In this document: one piece after another, positions 6,853 through 61,388 of the stretch
Position numbering within the stretch: the first letter of the stretch is position 1
Layout of the letters: each line of letters begins with the position of its first letter
NCBI GenBank assembly: GCA_029783825.1
Contig: JAREIK010002665.1
Coordinates: 1-64,000, forward strand
DNA from: Sapria himalayana
Taxonomy: Eukaryota > Streptophyta > Magnoliopsida > Malpighiales > Rafflesiaceae
DNA length: 64,000 nt
Reading direction: 5' to 3'
Program-made: the position numbers and the translations under genes
The notes under the pieces: model-generated
What the model was told of the DNA's origin: nothing
Databases searched by the model: none
The model's input: only the letters and a program-made list of their open reading frames with translations

Positions 6853-7198
6853 CAGCAAGTTCATCAAAATTCTCTAAATAAATAGTTTTGAGGGATGTAC
6901 TATTTTTGCATAGTGTTATTATTTTTTCTTTGTATTGTTTTTGTTGTATTTATATTATTTTTCATATATGTCAAATAATATGAATTTTTTTTAACAATTT
7001 TTTTTTTCCAGATGTTCCACAATTACAAGTATTTAACCTTTGTATGCTTTATTCTATTTTAGTAAAATAAACAGTTGATATGTCATGCCATTTTAAAGAC
7101 ATGGCTTAGTATTTTCCATCATTTTTTAATTTGTAATGATTTTCCTCATTTAACATCAATAATTTTTGCATTCTCCTTTCAATTCTGCATCTTCAAAC

Positions 7199-7660
7199 TA
7201 GAGATGTCAACCGGTCCGGCCTGGCCTGGCACGAGGCACAGCACGGTTCAGCCATGCCTGGGCCGGCCCGGCACGGAAAAATTCCGTGCCCGGGCCCGGG
7301 TCGTGCCGTGCCTGGCTAGTGCCGTGTCGTGCCTGACTCGGCACGGTTCGGCTCGGGGCACGGCACACCGGCACGGGTTTGTCCCGTGCCGGGTGTCCCG
7401 TGAGCCAGACCCCACGATGACCCCTCCCGCAAAAAAGACCGCGGGTCGGGTCTGATTCGACCCGAGCCGTGGTCCCCCCGAATCCCGACCCGTACGGACA
7501 TGCAAGCCCGAGCGGGCCAGGCAAGGCACGACATGGCCCGTCGTGCCTGCGGGCCGTGCTGGGCCCGGCTATTTTAAACCGTGCCGGCTTGGCACGGCGG
7601 CACGCTCGTGCTCAAAAAATTCGGGCCGGGCCGGCCGGACGGGCCCATTTGACACATCTA
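7199..7660. mobile_element. Non-autonomous hAT element with perfect 8-bp target duplication
   Basis: The element begins TAGAGATGTCAA and ends TTGACACATCTA, an 11/12 terminal inverted repeat. It is flanked on both sides by CTTCAAAC (7191-7198 and 7661-7668), the 8-bp duplication expected for hAT. The 462-bp interior is very GC-rich and filled with GGCACGG/CCGTGCC words in both orientations, probably subterminal binding sites for a transposase (inference). It has no coding sequence of its own; open frames here are by-products of GC richness. The same termini occur at 10006, 40055, 44388 and 48888. Confidence 0.95.
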
Positions 7661-15400: not shown

Positions 15401-16354
15401 GTTTAAAGCTTTTGAGTAGATGCCTACAACATGAATGCAAATTATAATTCCAAGCTCATACTTTCTTTAATGCAATAAACTATATGATTTAAGTGCTTGA
15501 TTGATGTGAGCTTCAATGATTCTAATTATTAAAAAGTTACTCGAAAAAACACCTTACATATTTGAAGAATCAGCAAAGAATAACTATAACTATATATATA
15601 TAAACCAATTTTCAAAAATGAACACAATGGTTTTAAAATTCGAAAACCAATGGTTTTCATTAAATAAAAAGTAGTTTAAAATATGAAAACGATAGTTATC
15701 TAATTGTGTGCCCAAAACATAAATATTTTATATTTTGATTATGTTTTTCTAGGTTTTAAAAATAAGATCATGACATAAATATTTTTCTTTTGAGACCCTT
15801 AAACATAATTTCCTTGTAAAAATTATTACTTTTCATAATTAAAATAAATAAATAACTATATTTATTTTCTAATTGAGTAAGTATATTTTTTTAGTCCCTA
15901 TATTTCCTACCAAACCAAACTTATATTATCTCTTAAGCCCATATATGAGTATTGAGGCCTTTGAGTTGAATCAAAATATCAAAAAAGATTTCCTTCCCAA
16001 GCGCATGATAGGTGATAGAGCAAGTAGAATGAGAAAATCACATCAAACATCTTTGCCGCTCGAACTTATATACTCAAAATTAAAGCATTCATTCTCTTTT
16101 TATCGATCAAACTATCATGTCATTGATAACTACTATTGTTTTTGGACACAAAATATTTTTCTAATTTGAAGCTAATTATGCAATATTAATATATAAGTGA
16201 GATGACTATAAAAAATATTTTAGGTCTATATAAAATCATAACAAGTTGTCTATGTAAACTCCAAAGATTAAACGAACCTAAAAGTTTTTTTAACATGGTA
16301 TTTTCTAGAGCCAAATTGACACCTCAAATAGTCACTAAAATTTTAGGACGAGAG
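15401..16354. other. AT-rich DNA with no recognised feature
   Basis: A 98-codon open frame at 15873-16169 has no motif I recognise and AT-driven codon use. I do not support it as a gene. Confidence 0.45.
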
Positions 16355-40879: not shown

Positions 40880-42886
40880 CAGTGGATGCAGATGTAGTCC
40901 CTGTCCTAGCTCCAGCACGATCATGGATACTAAACCTCGAATCCTCTCAATCCTTCAAACAGACTAAGGCCTCAATAATATATGGACGTAATCTAGATCT
41001 CATATCTGAAATCATGTTCACTGCAACAGAAAAAGCAGACTCCGATGCTATGCTCGACACCATAGGAGTCAATAGATCCCGTGCCATCATAGATGGCACG
41101 GGAAAGGTGGACTCATATGATTTCAACCACTATAATATATCAAGAATCTTAGTATCAGAATGTGATATAATTGAGTAGTAATTAGTATCTAAGTACCGAG
41201 AAAGCTCACTCATATGCGATGGTCCACCCCAACGTTTCCACATCGCTAACTGATAGAAAAATCATCATCTCTAAGGAAGGTATCTATGTCCATAATCACT
41301 GTCTCACTACTACTACCACCATACTTAGTATCGTAGTATGTGAACAGGTCAGTCAACTTCCCATGAATGAACCCTTCAGGTGGGTCTTCCAGGTTCATGC
41401 ACGAGGAAATGTAAGTTAGTGTGTTATCTACCCCTTCCACCTTAACCATAGGGTCCATGAATGCACGAGACTATAAAGAGATGGAATGGTGGACAAGTAC
41501 TTTAAGTACTTGGTTTCCATCTCTACAACCATATGGCTAAGTGTCGGGTGAGCTTGATACTTCCTAAACATGCTACTAATATTGCACATGCACCTGAATA
41601 CAATGCAAGTTGTGGAAGTATAAATCGACGAACACATGTTCGTGTGTCATTAAAAATCTTCAGGAATTTCATTTATGAAATTCCTGAAGCCTAGTTAGTG
41701 TCATCAATAATAAGTTCGTCACTCTTACTATTGACGTAATCAGATATCAAGTGTTCGTATCCAACACAAGACTCCAACATCAGGTACGTGAAATTCCAAT
41801 GGTGTCTCACATCCGATTAGAATTTCTTCTTCTTAAGATTCGCAGACAAACAGAGACTACCAAACTCTTGTTGTCTGTGAGGAGTACAAATATATTTTAG
41901 TATATTACGTATATTATCCAACGTGGGGAAACACACCTTCATACCCGCTTGAACAATCAGGTTAATCACGTGACACATGCATCTGACATGAAAGATCTCT
42001 CCTAATGGTGCATCTCTAATATTCCTAACAAATATGTTAATTGCTACTCCATTATTAGATGCATTATTGAATGTGATACTACAAATTTTATTTTGAATTT
42101 TATATTCCCTAAAGATTTTCATCATACACTCAAAAATGGCTGGGCCATGCTGAGGATGGAGAATCTCAGAGAATCCTATAATTTTTTTTTATTCATTATC
42201 TAGTTAGAATCTACATAGTGGCTGGGTTGACATGCATAAGATAATTCATCGTGACTTGTCCAGAAATCAGACGTCACGGACACCACTCCACTATATGCCA
42301 TAAATTCATTAATTTTTTTTTATTTTTCTAACTCATACAATTTTAGTATGTCATTCCTAGATGTGGACTTAGAAATCCTATGATAAGCATGCTGAAAATA
42401 TGTCTGCATGATGCGCACTACCCTTGGATCTTCCGAAAATCTGATAGGAAAACCCATCAATGTGATAAGTCTAGTCATGTCGTCTCTACCCAACTCGCTG
42501 GAGTATATTAAGGGAGTAAACTTTGAGACTGTACTCGATCCAACCTCAAAAAATGCAGTGCTAAGTTGGGTTTGCCTAGGATCTAATGGATCATATTTTT
42601 TAGTACATAATTTGGCATGCCTCTTAAGGTGCCCAGTCCCGAACGAACTCTTACAAGTTAAATTTCTCATACAATATTTGCATTGTGTCATTTTTTCTTC
42701 CTCACCTCTAATATTTTTTTGTTTTATTAAATTAAAATGAGTTCAAACTACAGAAGTCCTATTATTTTTTTTTATTTTACAAGTTTGTGTTGAGATGACT
42801 ATAGAAACCAAAGTTTCAATGACATCAAAACTCTGTGTAAGATTCTTATTTTCTAAATTTAAATATGTTTCATTAGTATTTGTCAT
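40880..42886 (-). pseudogene. hAT transposase (RICESLEEPER-like) pseudogene
   Basis: In active elements this enzyme binds the terminal repeats and moves them by cut-and-paste. The ATG is at 42886-42884. A BED finger follows: KNNRTSVV, a stop where W is expected, then MTQCKYCMRN and GHLKRHAKLC (about 42691-42600), giving the C-x2-C...H...H/C set. SEDPRVVRIMQTYF and SRNDILKLYELEK follow (to 42320). A central RNase H-like part contains ITFNNASNNGVAINIFVRNI and FHVRCMCHVINLIVQAG (42080-41930). The end has SELSRYLDTNYYS, FPVPSMMARDLL, SIASESAFSVA and SRLRPYIIEALVCLKD (about 41215-40950), the C-terminal dimerisation domain. Stops and frameshifts break it into at least six pieces. It is the best-preserved hAT transposase in the window. 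Confidence 0.92.
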
Positions 42887-43394
42887 TTTTAGGATTTTTG
42901 TTAAACAGCACACATGAGGTAGAGACTAGATGATAGATTTTACTATTTTAGGACTAGAGAGAGAGACTGAGAGAGAGAGAGAGAAAGTAAAAAAAACTCA
43001 AAATAAATTACCTGGTAAAGCAGGGAGGTCGATCATGTGTACAATGCACCAAAGTCTAGTTCAAAATTCCAAACCCGATATGAGAGTCCCGAAAAGCCGA
43101 GTCGAATGATGAAATCTCGAGTCCCAAGAGAAAGTAGAGCAAGAGTTTTGAGAGTGTGAGAATGTGAAATCTTAGAATAAATATTTATGAAAAACATAAA
43201 TATTATAGAGAGGTGGGGGGAATTTTAAAGATTAAAGGAAATAATTTTTTTAAAAAAAATATATATATTTTTTAATTTTTATTGTATTTTAGGGGGCAGA
43301 ATCATGAGGGCCATCGGATTCTGCCCCCTACCCGTTGGAGGCGAGATCCAATGGCTGTATTTCAAATTTATGTTTTTTTTTACATTTGCCCGTT

Positions 43395-43416
43395 GGGGGG
43401 GGGGGGGGGGGGGGGG
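43395..43416 (+). repeat. Run of 22 G
   Basis: An uninterrupted guanine homopolymer in the leader of the hAT element, followed by ATCGGGTCCGG. The length of such a run is often misread, so the true count may differ. Confidence 0.85.
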
Positions 43417-43799
43417 ATCGGGTCCGGCTGGACCGCGGGTCGAATCTGATTGTACCCGTGCCGGTGTTGGCGTGGACCGTGGACGCGTGGGCATCGAGAT
43501 AGGGTGTGGTGCAGGTGGGGACTGGCTGACCGGGGACTTGGGGTCGGGGGTCGTGGGGTGCTAGGTGCGAGTATGATCTTGACCCGTGTAGATGGGCCAT
43601 GCCACGGGCCACCGAACCATGCAGGGTCAGGCACGGCACGAGGCCCGGTTGGCCTTGACTCGGCACAGCATGATAGATGCCTTACCCAGGCACAGGAATA
43701 TTCTCATGCAGAGCTGGCCCAGGCACGGCCGAATCATGTCGTGCCTCGTGCCGCCCCTGCCAGGCCCGGCCCGGTTGAAACCTTTACGAAAAGATAAAT

Positions 43800-53319: not shown

Positions 53320-55760
53320 ATTCATAACTTTATATAACTAATTTGTAACTATATAATAATGTATAACTATATGTATAATTCTATATAACTATATTTCTAA
53401 AAAAATATACTATATATATATATATATACTAATATATAACTATATATAATTATATTTTACTAAATGTATACCTATATAAATGTTAAATATAATTATATCT
53501 CTAACTACATACATATTTATAACTATATGTGTATAACTATATATAAATATTTGTAAAAATATGTAACACTATATAATTAAATATAACTATATGTGTAACT
53601 ATATACATATATGTATTCATATAATTAAATTAAAATATTTGTTTATAACATTGTATATATTTATGTATAACTACTTATCACTACTTGTATAAATATATAT
53701 ATATATATATAACTATTTGTTTAATTATATATAACTATTTATAACTATATATATTATATATAAAATAATATATAACTATAAATAATTGTATCTTACTATG
53801 TGTATGACTTTAAAAGTTTTATTTATAATTATATTTAAATATTAAATTTACATCTTATATTTAATATATATTTGTATATAGTAGTATATAAAAAAGTATT
53901 TTACTATATCTATACCTATACATTATTATATGTATAAATATATAAAATTAAATTAACAAATATATAAACCTACATGTATAGATATACGTTTAACTATATG
54001 TGTAACTATATGTATAATCGAATGTAACAATATTTATAATTACATGTATAACAACATACAACATTATGTCAAACTATATATGTATAACTATATATTAATA
54101 TTTGTATAACTAAATAAATGTCTATATAATTATATATAATTATATTTGTAACTATATATACATTTATGTATTAATATAATTAAAGCAAAATATTTTTTTA
54201 TAACATTGTTTATATTTATGTATACCCACTTATAACTATTTGTATGAATATATCTATATATAACTATATGTTTAATTATATATAACTATTTATAACTATA
54301 TATATTATATCTAAAATAATATATAACTATAAATAATTATATCTTACTATGTGTATAACTTTAAAAGGTTTATGCATAATTATATTTAAATATTAAATGT
54401 ACTGCTTATATTTAATATATATTTGTATATAGTAGTATATAAAAAGTATTTTACTATATATATACCTATACATTACTTTATGTATAAATATATAAAATTA
54501 AATGAACAAATATATAAACCTACATGTATAAATATACGTTTAACTATATGTGTAACTATATGTATAATCACATGTAACAATATTTATAATTACATGTATA
54601 ACAACACACAACATTATGTCAAACTATATATGTACAACTATATATAAAAATTTGTATAACTAAATAAATGTCTATATAATTATATATAATTATATTTGTA
54701 ACTATATATACATTTATGTATTAATATAATCAAAGCAAAATATTTTTTTATAACATTGTTTATATTTATGTATAAGCACTTATAACTATTTGTATGAATA
54801 TATCTATATATAACTATATGTTTAATTATATATAACTATTTATAACTATATATATTATATGTAAAATAATATATAACTATAAATAATTGTATAGTACTAT
54901 GTGTATAACTTTAAAAGGTTTATGCATAATTATATTTAAATATTAAATTTACTGCTTATTTAATATATATTTGTATATAGTAGTATATAAAAAGTATTTT
55001 ACTATATCTATACCTATACATTACTTTATGTATAAATATATAAAATTAAATGAACAAATATATAAACCTACATGTATAGATATACGTTTAACTATATGTG
55101 TAACTAAATGTATAACCACATGTAACTATATTTATAATTACATGTATAACAACATACAACATTATTTTAAACTATATGTGTATAACTATATATAAATATT
55201 TGTACAACCAAATAAATATCTATATAATTATATATAACTATATTTGTAACTATATATACATTTATGTATTAATAAAATTAAAGCAAAATATTTTTTATAA
55301 CGTTGTTTTTATATATGTATAACTACTTATAACTACTTGTATGAATATATCTATATATAACTATATATATTATATGCAAAAAAATATATAACTATAAATA
55401 ATTGATCTTACTATGTGTATAACTTTAAAAAGTTTAATGCAAAATTATATTAAATATTAAATTTACAGCTTATATTTAATATATATTTGTATATAGTATT
55501 ATATAAAAAAGCATTTTACTATTTATATACATATACATTACTATATGTATAAATATATAAAATTAAATGAATAATATATAAACCTACATGTATAAATATA
55601 CGTTTAATTATATATGTAACTAAATGTATAACCACATGTAACTATATTTATAATTACATGTATAACAACACAACATTATTCTAAACTATATGTGTATAAC
55701 TATATATAAATATTTGTATCGCTAAATAAATGTCTATATAATTATATATACCTATATTTG

Positions 55761-55817
<57 letters not shown>

Positions 55818-56095
55818 GTATTTATGTATTAATATAATTAAAGTAAAATATTTTTTTATAACGTTGTTTATATTTATGTATAACCACTTATAACTATTTG
55901 TATGAATATATCTAAATATAACTATATGTTTTATTATATATAACTATTTATAACTATATATATTATATGTAAATTAATATATAACTATAAATAATTGTTT
56001 CTGACTATGTGTATAACTTTAAAAGTTTTATGCATAATTATATTTAAATATTAAGTTTACAGCTTATATTTAATATATATTTGTATATAGGTTCA
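53320..56095 (+). repeat. AT-only tandem array, about 516-594 bp unit, five copies
   Basis: The anchor TTTGTATATA (after TATTTAATATATA) occurs at 53871, 54422, 54970, 55486 and 56080, giving periods of 551, 548, 516 and 594 bp. Each unit repeats a fixed order: ACTATGTGTATAACTTTAAA, the anchor, AAACCTACATGTATA, TATACGTTTAA, AACAACA..CAACATTAT, TTATGTATTAATA. Units two and three are the most alike. The last is expanded by a (TA)n(TGTA)n run at 55762-55823. Open frames repeated 548 bp apart are artefacts of the array. Confidence 0.92.
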
Positions 56096-57139: not shown

Positions 57140-58875
57140 ATGGCATGTGGAGGAGGTAGAGGCAGCACATTGCAAGGTTGTATGAGCTATGGTATAGGCA
57201 GCACGACCTCATGTATGCCCGAAACTGGTAGAGGGTCATCGGTGGTAGAGATGCCACAGCAGACAGAGAAAGTTGTGAATATACCACAGCAGTAGTATCA
57301 GCTGACTGATCCACATAATGGTCATGAGATTTTGATGAATGATAAATAGATGTGGGAGGGAGAGGATGGAGAGGATGGAGAGGATGGAGATATCGAAGAA
57401 TCTTCCTCAGAGCACCCTACAGACAAGAGTCTCCCAATTGCTCATTTTGATCCGACAATTGATAATCCGTAAGATATAAAACTTAACAAATTATTTATCA
57501 ATTTATTAATTTATTTCTTACTTAATAATAATTTTTTTGTTACAGGATGAAGTTAGAGTCTTTTGGTTTCATTTATAGGGTTCTGAGGATAATTTTCAGG
57601 AAGTCCTTTAAATCTAATGGACATAATTGGAAGTCACTCACACATAGAGACCAGTTAATGATTTGAAAAGAATTTAAGATAAATATTATTACCTAAAAAT
57701 TTTTACATTTTTTATTTATTCTTTTGTTCACTAATTAAAATTTATTTATTTATAATTACAGAAAGTTTATAGGTGGATACAACTAAAGGAGTCGGTCAAA
57801 AGTGTATTCTATAAATATGTTGTCAATCAATATAAAGACACCGTGTACGAGATCAAAGATAAATGACTAAAGAAGAAAGAAAAAGATTCGAGTGTCCCGG
57901 ATCATGTTTTTGAGGAGTGGCGGAGAAGATGAGAAGATCCGAATTATAGGAAGATGTGTGATAAACAAAGCGACAATCATCGCTTAGAGTGGGCTGGAGA
58001 GAGTAGTGGCATGTCTACACACACTTGTGGATCTCACTCTATGCGTGAGCACGAACGAGCATTGGTATTATTTATAATTTATACTTTTTATGTTTTATTA
58101 CTTTATGAATTGTGTTCAATTAGGCCTAAAATCATTTCTCATAAGAAACTTTTTTCAATATAATTAACGTATGTATTGTGTGTAATTATAGACACGCAAG
58201 GAGGGTAAGAAGCCCAATGCTCCTCGCTTATTCAGATACACACACACGAAGGCTCATGATGATCAGACTTTCATTAATCAGAGATCTCGTGCAACAAATA
58301 TAAGTTTAAATAAAAAAAAATAATAATCTTTTTTTTGTTTGAATATAAATTGAAATACTTTTCGAACATTTTTATTAGGTTAGATATGAAAAAATATTAG
58401 CTACTGCGACTCAAGCATATTCCCAGTCTACTTCAGGTTCATGTGATAGTGCAACAGGTAATTCTCATTCATCAGCTCCACCAATTGATGCGAATTAGAT
58501 TTGGTATGTGGCTGTTGATGGCAAGGAGAAGATTCTCGTCTATGGCGTTGGTTCGTCGACATCATCATTCTACTCGCATAGACGACCAGACTATGAATCT
58601 GAATTTTTAGGACCAATTTCAAATTTATTCTTGAAGATAGAGAAATTTCAGGATGAGATGCAAAATTCGATACAATTTCAATTTTCCGATACCGAGCGAG
58701 GCATGATCGACTATGGGGATGATAGGGATGAGTTGCGAATGTGTTTTGACTGGCTTACAAAGAAGTTTCAGAAACGAGGACTGCAGTTCAACCCTGATGA
58801 TCTACCTCAGATTGTTTGGCGTAATACTATAGCTACCGCATCTACTCCATATGAATCAAAAATAGGAAACATAAT
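57140..58875 (+). pseudogene. CACTA TNP1-like (Ptta/En-Spm family) pseudogene, five exons
   Basis: This family binds the subterminal motifs of the element. The start is ATG at 57140 (MACGGGRGSTLQG). Introns that fit GT-AG and restore homology are 57469-57545, one ending AG at 57761, 58065-58191, and one ending at 58378. Exons read in turn: an acidic N-terminus; SNGHNWKSLTHRDQLMIWKE; VSDHVF-like PDHVFEEWRRR, then NYRKMCDKQSDNHRLEWAG and GSHSMREHERAL; RKEGKKPNAPRLFRYTHTKA; and a last exon with VAVDGKEKILVYGVGSSTS and LFLKIEKFQDEMQ. At least five in-frame stops (near 57295, 57350, 57866, 57931, 58498) inactivate it. The last 168-codon stretch (58508-59014) is still open, but its final third looks like run-on into non-coding DNA. 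Confidence 0.9.
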
Positions 58876-59013
58876 GTATAAAATACTTTACACTATGCAT
58901 GCTATCTATTTTACTATAGGCATGCTAAGCATATATCAATCTAACATCAGACAATTTTGGAAAACAATAAGATGCATAATCATGTATTTGAAAAGGAGCA
59001 ATGATTCTATTTA

Positions 59014-59281
59014 GGAATATAAAGCAAATAATCTTATACATATTGGATATTCAGACTTTGATTTCCAATTAGATGAGGATGTGAAAAAATTTAATCTTGA
59101 ATTGTGTTAACTTGGGAAGTAGAGTCAAAAGTTAAAGAATTATTAATCTTGTATTATTGATTATATCATAAAAATCAAGCATATGATATTTTTAGATGTC
59201 ACTAAGGAAGCTATATAACTTTAACTTTTTTACATGTCTAATTATTCATTATATACAAATGCCTATTACACATTATTATTA
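59014..59281. other. AT-rich DNA between CACTA and MULE candidate
   Basis: Searched for a CACTA right terminus or GGTCGGT subterminal words; none seen. No coding. Confidence 0.55.
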
Positions 59282-59777
59282 GGGAGAATTATGTATTAAG
59301 GTGTTTTCCTAAAAATCTTTAACATTAAAATAAAAATTTTGGTATTTTTAAAGGTCAAAAACTAAAAATAAAGTAAAAATAATGTTACTCGATTTCATAA
59401 GTCTTAAAATACAATTGCCCCTCCCCTGCCCCTAGCCCCTTGCCCACGCCAAAACCCCCACCCCTCTCATCCTCGTTAATCTGCCATCACCTCTCACCCC
59501 TCTCTTCCCACCCATCTCCCGCCAGCCTTTTCCACGAGCTCCTTCATGGAGCTCCGTCGAGCTCAATATGGAGCTCCAGTGAGCTCCACGTCAACCTCAC
59601 TAGAGCTCAACAGAGCTACGCAAAGGAGTTCATGGTGAAGTGCTTGGGTTAGTTTAGGACTTAAGAATTCAGGTGACCTTATTTTTAATTTATTTAGTTG
59701 ACTTTTATAAGCATATCAAAAATTTAGTTTCTAAATATTAAAAATTTTTGGAGAATCACCTCAAAACACAATTCTTC
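59282..59777. mobile_element. Mutator-like element with long inverted repeats (Pack-MULE candidate)
   Basis: The left arm GGGAGAATTATGT..AAGGTG..CTAAAAATCTTTAA (from 59282) is mirrored by the right arm ending TTTTTGG..CACCTC..ACACAATTCTTC (59777). The similarity continues inward to about 59412 and 59650, giving inverted repeats of about 130 bp. ATTATTATTA (59272-59281) and ATTATTATAA (59778-59787) are a 9/10 candidate duplication, within the size typical of Mutator-like elements, though AT-simple. The interior, 59413-59650, is GC-rich, unlike anything nearby, and open for 70 codons on the plus strand. A captured gene fragment is likely but its source is unknown. Confidence 0.8.
59440..59652 (+). 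pseudogene. GC-rich captured fragment inside the MULE candidate
   Basis: I do not recognise the source gene. The plus-strand frame begins MPTPKPPPLSSSLICHHLSP and is proline/serine/histidine-rich. It then has repeated GGAGCTCC words (59540-59590) giving HELLHGAPSSSIWSSS, and ends MVKCLG and a stop within the right inverted repeat. The minus strand is also partly open (a SMKELVEKAGGRWVG-like segment), so the true coding strand is undecided. The start codon lies inside the GC-rich part, just after the left inverted repeat. It could equally be non-coding GC-rich filler. The composition contrast with both sides is the main evidence of transfer. Confidence 0.45.
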
Positions 59778-61388
59778 ATTATTATAATAATAGAGTAGTT
59801 ATATATTCGAAAGTGGCAAAAATCCACAAGGCAAAACACAATCATAAATATCATGTAATAATAAAAATTATAAAAGAGATTCTGATAAAAATTACACTGA
59901 CAAACAATTTGACAAATCCTTTTACAAAGACTTCTAAATTAAATTTTTAAGACGTGGGATCTTGTCACTTTAAATTCAATAGAAGATTTTTGAAATTTAT
60001 TTATCCTAATTCTTTTTTGATTTACATATTTTTCTTCTCTTAATAAAATATTAAGATGAGCAAAATTAATAGAAATATCACATAGGATTAAAGATGTTAG
60101 AAGCTTAGTTTTGCAAATTGGAAATACATGGTTTAATTAAATGTGAATTACTATATAAACACATTACTACAAGACATACATTACATTCAACATATGCAAC
60201 AATTAAATTATGACAAATAAATTCAAGCAAGACGGTGAACTAATTACCAATATGATAGATGCAAAAATCAATGAGAATTAAAGGAAACAAAGAAAAAAAC
60301 AGACAATAAATCATATGCAGATTTCTGTGCGTGACAACTAAGCAGCATGCTTGAAAATTTCAAGTGCCATTCACAAAATTTAACCAAGTAAATAAGCAAG
60401 AAAAGCTGGTTGACTGCAGTTGCACACTTAAATTAAATAATAAATAATTCTAGGGCACAACCCTACTGGTTTGATTAGGGCACTAACCTGCGTGTTTGAT
60501 TAGAGAGCAAGGCAGTTAGCATAATTATGGCAAAAACTTATAGCTTGCTTAGAATAACATTACTTGGACAAGGTCACATCACAACCCAAGCTTAACTGAA
60601 CTTTTTTATTAATAATTATTGAATCATGAGTAAATATAAATATTTATCTTGATATGGGTATATACATAACTTTAATTTACCTTAAAAGCAGACAAAAATT
60701 AATGCTTTATATTTGTATAAATCTTTGATAAACTAGCATGTAATTTAAGCAATAAATTCAGAACTAAATCAGATTTAAATTTCATAAATCAAAAATAAGT
60801 ATTGTCACATTAGCTGGTAAATATAGCTATTATTATGTTTTTACAGCAATTTTAGGGAATTAATGCAAGATTTTACTTACCTAATACCTCTAAATTTTAT
60901 AATTACAATTATTTTTTGAAATTATTTCTAGACAACCATATTAGACTTTATTTTTATTTTTAATTATTGAATCATATTAACTTTTGTGTGTAAGTAAATA
61001 TGTGTGTGTGTGTGTGTGTTAATATGGGTATATATGCACACACGTATAATACTTTAATTTATCTTTAAATAGTTAACCAAAACTTAATTTATGTTTTTTT
61101 TCTCATATATTTATGGATTTTTGCTATGCTTTGGATAAACTAGTTACTAATTTAAGCAATAAATTTAAAATGAAAATACAAAAAAATTAAGATTAAATCT
61201 GTCAAAAATCAAAAAATGAACAGTTTTGATCAAAAGTTTATTATTTAAATAAAGTATCTCCTTTTATTATCATCAATAATTTTTCATTTTTTCTACAATA
61301 TAGTTATTCTATTGTATTTATTATTATTATTATTTACTTTAAATGTCACCTTTAAAATTGTGGTAATTATCTTTTATTAATCTTATTA

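What the first reader, a model, noticed from the sequence alone, without database searches (positions are those of the whole stretch)
59282..59777. Pack-MULE candidate: long inverted repeats around a GC-rich foreign interior
Seen: arms of about 130 bp that match in inverted orientation, a 9/10 flanking repeat, and a 240-bp GC-rich centre in otherwise AT-rich DNA, open for 70 codons. Known: Pack-MULEs carry gene fragments, often GC-rich, between Mutator inverted repeats. Inference: this is such an element and the centre came from a host gene.
Basis: partly seen in the sequence, partly recalled or inferred. Interest (0 to 1): 0.75.

Follow-up and report, generated by a model that had tools for sequence, protein, structure and literature searches.

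The report
Jumping-DNA remnant with shared palindrome core
This is an old, non-coding jumping-DNA copy whose GC-rich middle is not a stolen gene but an array of short palindromes that at least two unrelated transposon families in this genome carry, which raises the question of how transposons exchange their cores.

Summary
In detail: 59282-59778 is a 497-bp element with ~130-bp inverted arms (100 identities in 121 ungapped pairs; 0 of 4976 random window pairs score as high), a 9-bp flanking duplication (8/9) and a 58% GC centre. Forty-one arm pairs (window copy included) share termini GGGRGAATTATG and a 9-bp duplication (23 of 41 at 8/9 or better): a non-autonomous Mutator-like family, "A". 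Gene capture is not supported: the centre's open frame has no Pfam match or protein homologue, and 20 of 20 fetched genome matches to the centre are GAGCTC-palindrome repeats beside an inverted arm. Five have A arms; 15 have a different arm, "B" (11 of these on both sides), which also makes a 9-bp duplication. A and B centres are homologous over ~80 bp, while the arms are not detectably related. Three spaced palindromes occur 15,415 times in the genome against 21 for the reversed pattern. So one non-coding palindrome module is shared by two Mutator-type end families, probably by a third context. The element itself is ordinary; the shared module is the interesting part.

The parts
59273..59281 (.). 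left target-site duplication, 9 bp (TTATTATTA)
   Evidence: 8 of 9 match the right copy
59282..59412 (+). left terminal inverted repeat, family A (starts GGGAGAATTATG)
   Evidence: alignment; profile match E 1.8e-19 in the window
59413..59535 (+). C/T-rich inner stretch (77% C+T in its first 110 bases), homologous to that of other A and of B elements
59536..59608 (.). GAGCTC palindrome array: six sites at 59536, 59549, 59559, 59571, 59581 and 59603
   Evidence: four adjacent pairs with 3-7-base spacers against 0 in 100 shuffles of the window
59609..59649 (+). rest of the centre; the G/A-rich mirror stretch found here in many relatives is not detected in this copy
59650..59778 (-). right terminal inverted repeat, family A
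   Evidence: profile match E 6.2e-26 in the window
59779..59787 (.). right target-site duplication, 9 bp (TTATTATAA)
59401..59652 (+). open frame of 83 codons, proline/serine-rich; most likely not a gene
   Evidence: negative; 1976 of 5000 shuffles have an open frame

Best explanation
An old, internally shortened copy of a multi-copy non-autonomous Mutator-like family (A). Shown: long inverted arms, shared termini, 9-bp duplications, no coding match in this copy, and a centre made of a C/T-rich stretch and a GAGCTC palindrome array whose size differs greatly between copies. Shown: a homologous centre sits inside elements with a different inverted repeat (B) that also makes a 9-bp duplication. 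Inferred: a Mutator-type transposase supplied in trans moved these elements by acting on the arms; the centre rides along and grows or shrinks by slippage and strand switching at the self-complementary GAGCTC units when element DNA is copied or gaps are repaired; long ago the centre passed between the two end families, most simply by template switching in gap repair or by separate uptake of the same repeat. It does not look taken from a gene.
For: Duplication of 9 bp: mean match 0.78 against 0.40 for mispaired flanks, 23 of 41 at 8/9 or 9/9. Arm divergence 15% from the majority base, left-right identity 65-92% over 38 elements: old copies. Centre shared: 84-base B core found in 65 of 91 A and 26 of 28 B inner ends, one match in 119 shuffled sequences. 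B duplications 0.78 against 0.42, 11 pairs. A profile against 21 B flanks: best E 0.49. Array rules: spacers of 3, 4, 6, 7 bases 152, 287, 119, 209 times, 5 bases 5 times; the same spacer word in one array in both orientations, 56 same and 28 opposite pairs for 6-7-base words. Mutator transposase domains are present in the genome (150 scored of 632 candidates).
Against: No autonomous element with A or B ends was found; the one transposase locus read has neither. 18 of 41 pairs have duplications of 7/9 or worse. 2 of 20 loci chosen by the A arm hold no GAGCTC and only one arm in the stretch read (L073, L081). The exchange route and the slippage/strand-switch mechanism are inference; no free copy or intermediate was seen.
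Confidence: 0.83

Rival explanations
1. A true Pack-MULE: the centre is a fragment of a host gene, for example one for a proline- and serine-rich protein, captured by this element or by the family ancestor.
For: GC-rich centre, open frame of 83 codons, a centre that also occurs with other arms; Pack-MULEs are reported to take GC-rich sequence (passages of PMC4858842).
Against: No Pfam match, no homologue, open frame expected from composition, 20 of 20 fetched matches are repeats beside inverted arms, palindrome array instead of gene-like sequence.
Confidence: 0.05
2. The GAGCTC array is a free genomic minisatellite into which, or out of which, several element families were built independently; A and B each took it up separately.
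For: Of 10 arrays taken by pattern on contig C9, 2 have B ends, 2 weak A ends, 4 (L090, L094, L096, L098) share a third kind of flank and 2 (L092, L093) are unassigned.
Against: The same C/T-rich edge lies at the inner end of A and of B arms in the same orientation, which one exchange explains more simply; I saw no long free-standing array, but few were read.
Confidence: 0.2
3. The palindrome array is functional cargo: GAGCTC sites at set spacing bind a host or transposon protein, and selection keeps them.
For: 355 perfect against 224 one-mismatch sites in 17 elements chosen by their arms or the window (shuffles 3.7 and 61), i.e. less decay than the 15% of the arms; spacing avoids 5-base spacers (5 of 772).
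Against: Homogenisation by copying within the array gives the same picture; the sites lack CG, so they may also mutate slowly (inference); no binding data.
Confidence: 0.1

Closest known systems
Non-autonomous Mutator-like elements and Pack-MULEs of plants (PMC3310237 introduction read; PMC4858842 passages seen)
   Same: Long inverted arms in the 100-500 bp range, 9-bp duplication in the 9-11 bp range, no transposase in the copy, GC-rich centre.
   Different: No gene fragment found in the centre; instead a palindrome array common to the family and shared with a second end family.
Tetris foldback element of Drosophila virilis (PMC4079207, abstract and outline seen)
   Same: Non-autonomous inverted-repeat element with internal tandem repeats of variable number, modular and rearranged forms, end sequence shared with another element.
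   Different: Repeats of about 220 bp lying in the inverted repeats and feeding satellite DNA; here 22-23-bp palindrome units in the centre, shared between different ends, in a different superfamily setting.
SaTar elements of guayule and rice (PMC5907723, abstract and section on structure seen)
   Same: Many small non-autonomous Mutator-like families (about 0.4-1.7 kb) in one plant genome.
   Different: Defined by targeting of microsatellites and linear clustering, 10-bp duplications; no shared GAGCTC core is described in the parts I saw.

Membership tests
Mutator-like element (non-autonomous) | Target-site duplication of 9-11 bp (PMC3310237) | tested here: met
   9 bp; mean match 0.78 against 0.40 in 41 pairs, 23 of 41 at 8/9 or better
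Mutator-like element (non-autonomous) | Long terminal inverted repeats, typically 100-500 bp (PMC3310237) | tested here: met
   about 130 bp in the window, 135 bp profile for the family
Mutator-like element (non-autonomous) | Moved by a MULE transposase that recognises these ends | tested here: inconclusive
   MULE domains present; one locus read, without A or B ends
Pack-MULE | Carries a gene or gene fragment between Mutator-type arms (PMC3310237, PMC4858842) | tested here: not met
   repeat matches only; the plant's gene models could not be searched
Pack-MULE | GC-rich acquired centre | tested here: inconclusive
   GC 0.58, but the GC-rich centre is the family's shared repeat, not a match to a parent gene
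Foldback element with internal tandem repeats (Tetris-like) | Inverted repeats that themselves hold tandem repeats of variable number | tested here: inconclusive
   The arms hold no palindrome array; the C/T-rich stretch and its mirror extend the symmetry in many relatives (65 of 91 A inner ends hold the core) but not in the window copy

The most novel reading that the evidence does not exclude
GAGCTC arrays are a separate, self-reshuffling DNA module: palindromic joints let short spacers be recombined in either orientation, and the module passes between unrelated transposon families, so that it has spread to thousands of places in one genome, perhaps because something binds it.
Probability: 0.18. 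Interest if true: 0.75.

Novelty: new variant of a known kind. Interest (0 to 1): 0.48.

Why it matters
How transposons acquire and swap internal sequence is mostly inferred from captured genes. Here a repeat with no detected coding role is carried by two Mutator-type end families without detectable similarity, at high copy number, with joints that can be counted. That makes strand switching in transposon gap repair testable by sequence statistics, and it shows that a GC-rich, open centre between long inverted repeats is not enough to call a Pack-MULE.

Tried and rejected
Gene capture: not supported (shuffle control). Chance inverted repeat: rejected. A and B as diverged forms of one end: no sign in a profile search (best E 0.49 among 21 flanks). 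Autonomous partner: one locus read, nothing found. The third context (L090, L094, L096, L098): its right-hand flank matches among these loci and partly L092, its AT-rich left flank also matches many loci weakly; termini could be placed for some copies only and no clear target duplication was seen, so it is not assigned to a superfamily. Identification of the species through matK: no match, and the control genomes gave none either, so the search says nothing. Rfam over the window: no match. Two other GC-rich stretches of the window: no inverted repeats of 40 bases or more. Literature: nine searches listed nothing on GAGCTC arrays in transposons; one search gave one paper with GAGCTC, on rice epigenomes, seen in the listing only; apart from PMC3310237, PMC4079207, PMC5907723 and PMC4858842 I saw listings only.

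Limits of counts: the fetched loci hold close duplicates (L075, L076, L077; and L029, L030, L031, L038 look like close copies), which were removed only in part: one search used 38 of the 41 pairs (L032, L075, L077 dropped), one search left out L075 and L077 and loci L001-L028, one search left out L030, L031, L075 and L077; (spacers) did not remove them. One search scored 40 of 1380 candidates and one search scored 40 of 317; I fetched 20 places from each list. Of 18 arrays listed on contig C9 I fetched 10; left out were two mid-list ones, which have the most sites, and the last six. The figure of about 5,500 arrays is 15,415 sites divided by 50/18 sites per array on that list, by hand, and is rough.

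Full report
Observation. At 59282-59778 two arms of about 130 bp match in inverted orientation: 100 identities, 21 mismatches, 11 gap positions; none of 4976 random pairs from the window scores as high. The flanks carry a 9-bp repeat, 8 of 9. The 237-bp centre has 58% GC.

Family A. Genome searches with the whole element, the centre and the left arm gave many matches (each scored 40 candidates only). From 60 fetched places and the window, 41 arm pairs could be formed. They share the termini GGGRGAATTATG and are 497-1,678 bp long where both ends could be anchored. Over end positions and duplication lengths, 9 bp next to that terminus stands out: mean match 0.78 against 0.40 for mispaired flanks; shorter windows inside the same repeat also score (7 bp, 0.83 against 0.42). 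23 of 41 are 8/9 or 9/9; 18 are 7/9 or worse, some of them poorly anchored. Arms diverge by 15% from the majority base, and left and right arms of one element are 65-92% identical in 38 elements, so the copies are old. Long arms and 9-11-bp duplications are the features that PMC3310237 (introduction read) gives for Mutator-like elements.

The centre does not look like a gene. Its open frame gives a proline- and serine-rich peptide without Pfam match or homologue (a search that needs shared 5-residue words). 1976 of 5000 shuffles also leave a frame open. The 20 places fetched from the list of centre matches are all GAGCTC arrays beside an inverted arm: 5 with A arms (4 on both sides), 15 with another arm, B (11 on both sides within the stretch read).

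Anatomy of the centre. Inward from the arm come a C/T-rich stretch and an array of the palindrome GAGCTC; many relatives then have the mirror image of the C/T-rich stretch before the other arm. In the window copy that mirror is not detected, so I read it as an internally shortened form with six palindromes. In L036 and L074 the G-rich side has expanded into a GGGCGA-type repeat and the inside reaches 73-74% GC. Over 87 arrays there are 1538 palindromes in 28,057 bp against 11 in shuffles, and distances peak at 9-10 and 12-13 bp. Spacers of 3, 4, 6 and 7 bases number 152, 287, 119 and 209; 5-base spacers only 5. Short and long distances alternate (279 alternating, 80 short-short, 19 long-long), which amounts to a 22-23-bp unit with two palindromes. 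The same spacer recurs within an array in both orientations: 56 same and 28 opposite pairs for 6-7-base spacers, 112 and 53 for 3-4-base ones. Single strands of three array stretches fold better than shuffles (z -4.1, -10.0, -5.9); a window arm gives -1.0; a palindrome array would be expected to do so. In 17 elements (16 chosen by the arm, and the window copy) 355 perfect and 224 one-mismatch sites stand against 3.7 and 61 in shuffles. I infer growth by slippage and strand switching at the palindromes; selection on the sites is possible but not shown.

Family B and the shared module. B arms are about 240 bp, begin GAGTTTTGTACGG, and also make 9-bp duplications (11 pairs, 0.78 against 0.42). 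The A profile finds no B arm (best E 0.49 against 21 flanks). Yet an 84-base core of the B centre is found in 65 of 91 A inner ends and 26 of 28 B inner ends, with one match among 119 shuffled sequences. Of these, 72 were long enough to compare: mean identity A-A 0.73, B-B 0.80, A-B 0.75; the nearest neighbour below 97% is of the same family for 56 of 72 (41 of 51 A, 15 of 21 B). The simplest reading is one or a few old exchanges of the centre between two end families. One element with B ends has a different centre without GAGCTC (L084:183-1323). Two of 20 loci chosen by the A arm have no GAGCTC and only one arm in the stretch read (L073, L081).

Abundance and a third context. Three palindromes with 3-7-base spacers occur at 15,415 sites against 21 for the reversed pattern; several sites can fall in one array, so I estimate roughly 5,500 arrays by hand. 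Of ten arrays read on contig C9 (of 18 listed), two have B ends (one of them on one side only), two weak A matches, four share a third kind of flank, two are unassigned. The third kind has no clear target duplication.

Mechanism and novelty. Shown: Mutator-type structure, a shared centre without coding match, array rules. Inferred: transposition in trans, passive expansion, exchange by template switching. MULE domains are present (150 scored of 632 candidates), but the one locus read has neither A nor B ends. Pack-MULE membership fails on its defining feature as far as it could be tested here. The element is a new variant of non-autonomous Mutator-like elements; the closest published parallels I saw are Tetris (PMC4079207, abstract and outline) and SaTar elements (PMC5907723, abstract and one section).

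Noticed in passing
L084:183-1323: An element with B-type arms (about 185 bp matched on both sides) whose 42-44% GC centre has no GAGCTC; a candidate for a differently loaded relative. Six frames all carry stops.
   Followed up: partly
L062:774-1943, L034, L086: A-type arms in close clusters: back-to-back arms in L062, two elements each in L034 and L086.
   Followed up: no
window 42320-42691 (-): Open frame with a C-x2-C...H-x4-H-like stretch that reads like a BED-type zinc finger of hAT transposases; recalled motif, not searched.
   Followed up: no
window 7075-7455 and 43328-43797: Two other GC-rich stretches with open frames on low-complexity sequence; no inverted repeats of 40 bases or more around them.
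   Followed up: partly
window 54001-56000: Extremely AT-rich 2-kb bin, GC 0.143.
   Followed up: no
G000 contigs C18130, C3642, C5559, C12639, C1495, C7634, C9743: Seven MULE transposase matches with equal or nearly equal scores and open frames of 399-404 codons, several on places near contig starts; may be a recently multiplied family.
   Followed up: no
window 58508-59014 (+): Open frame of 168 codons just upstream of the element, no Pfam match.
   Followed up: partly
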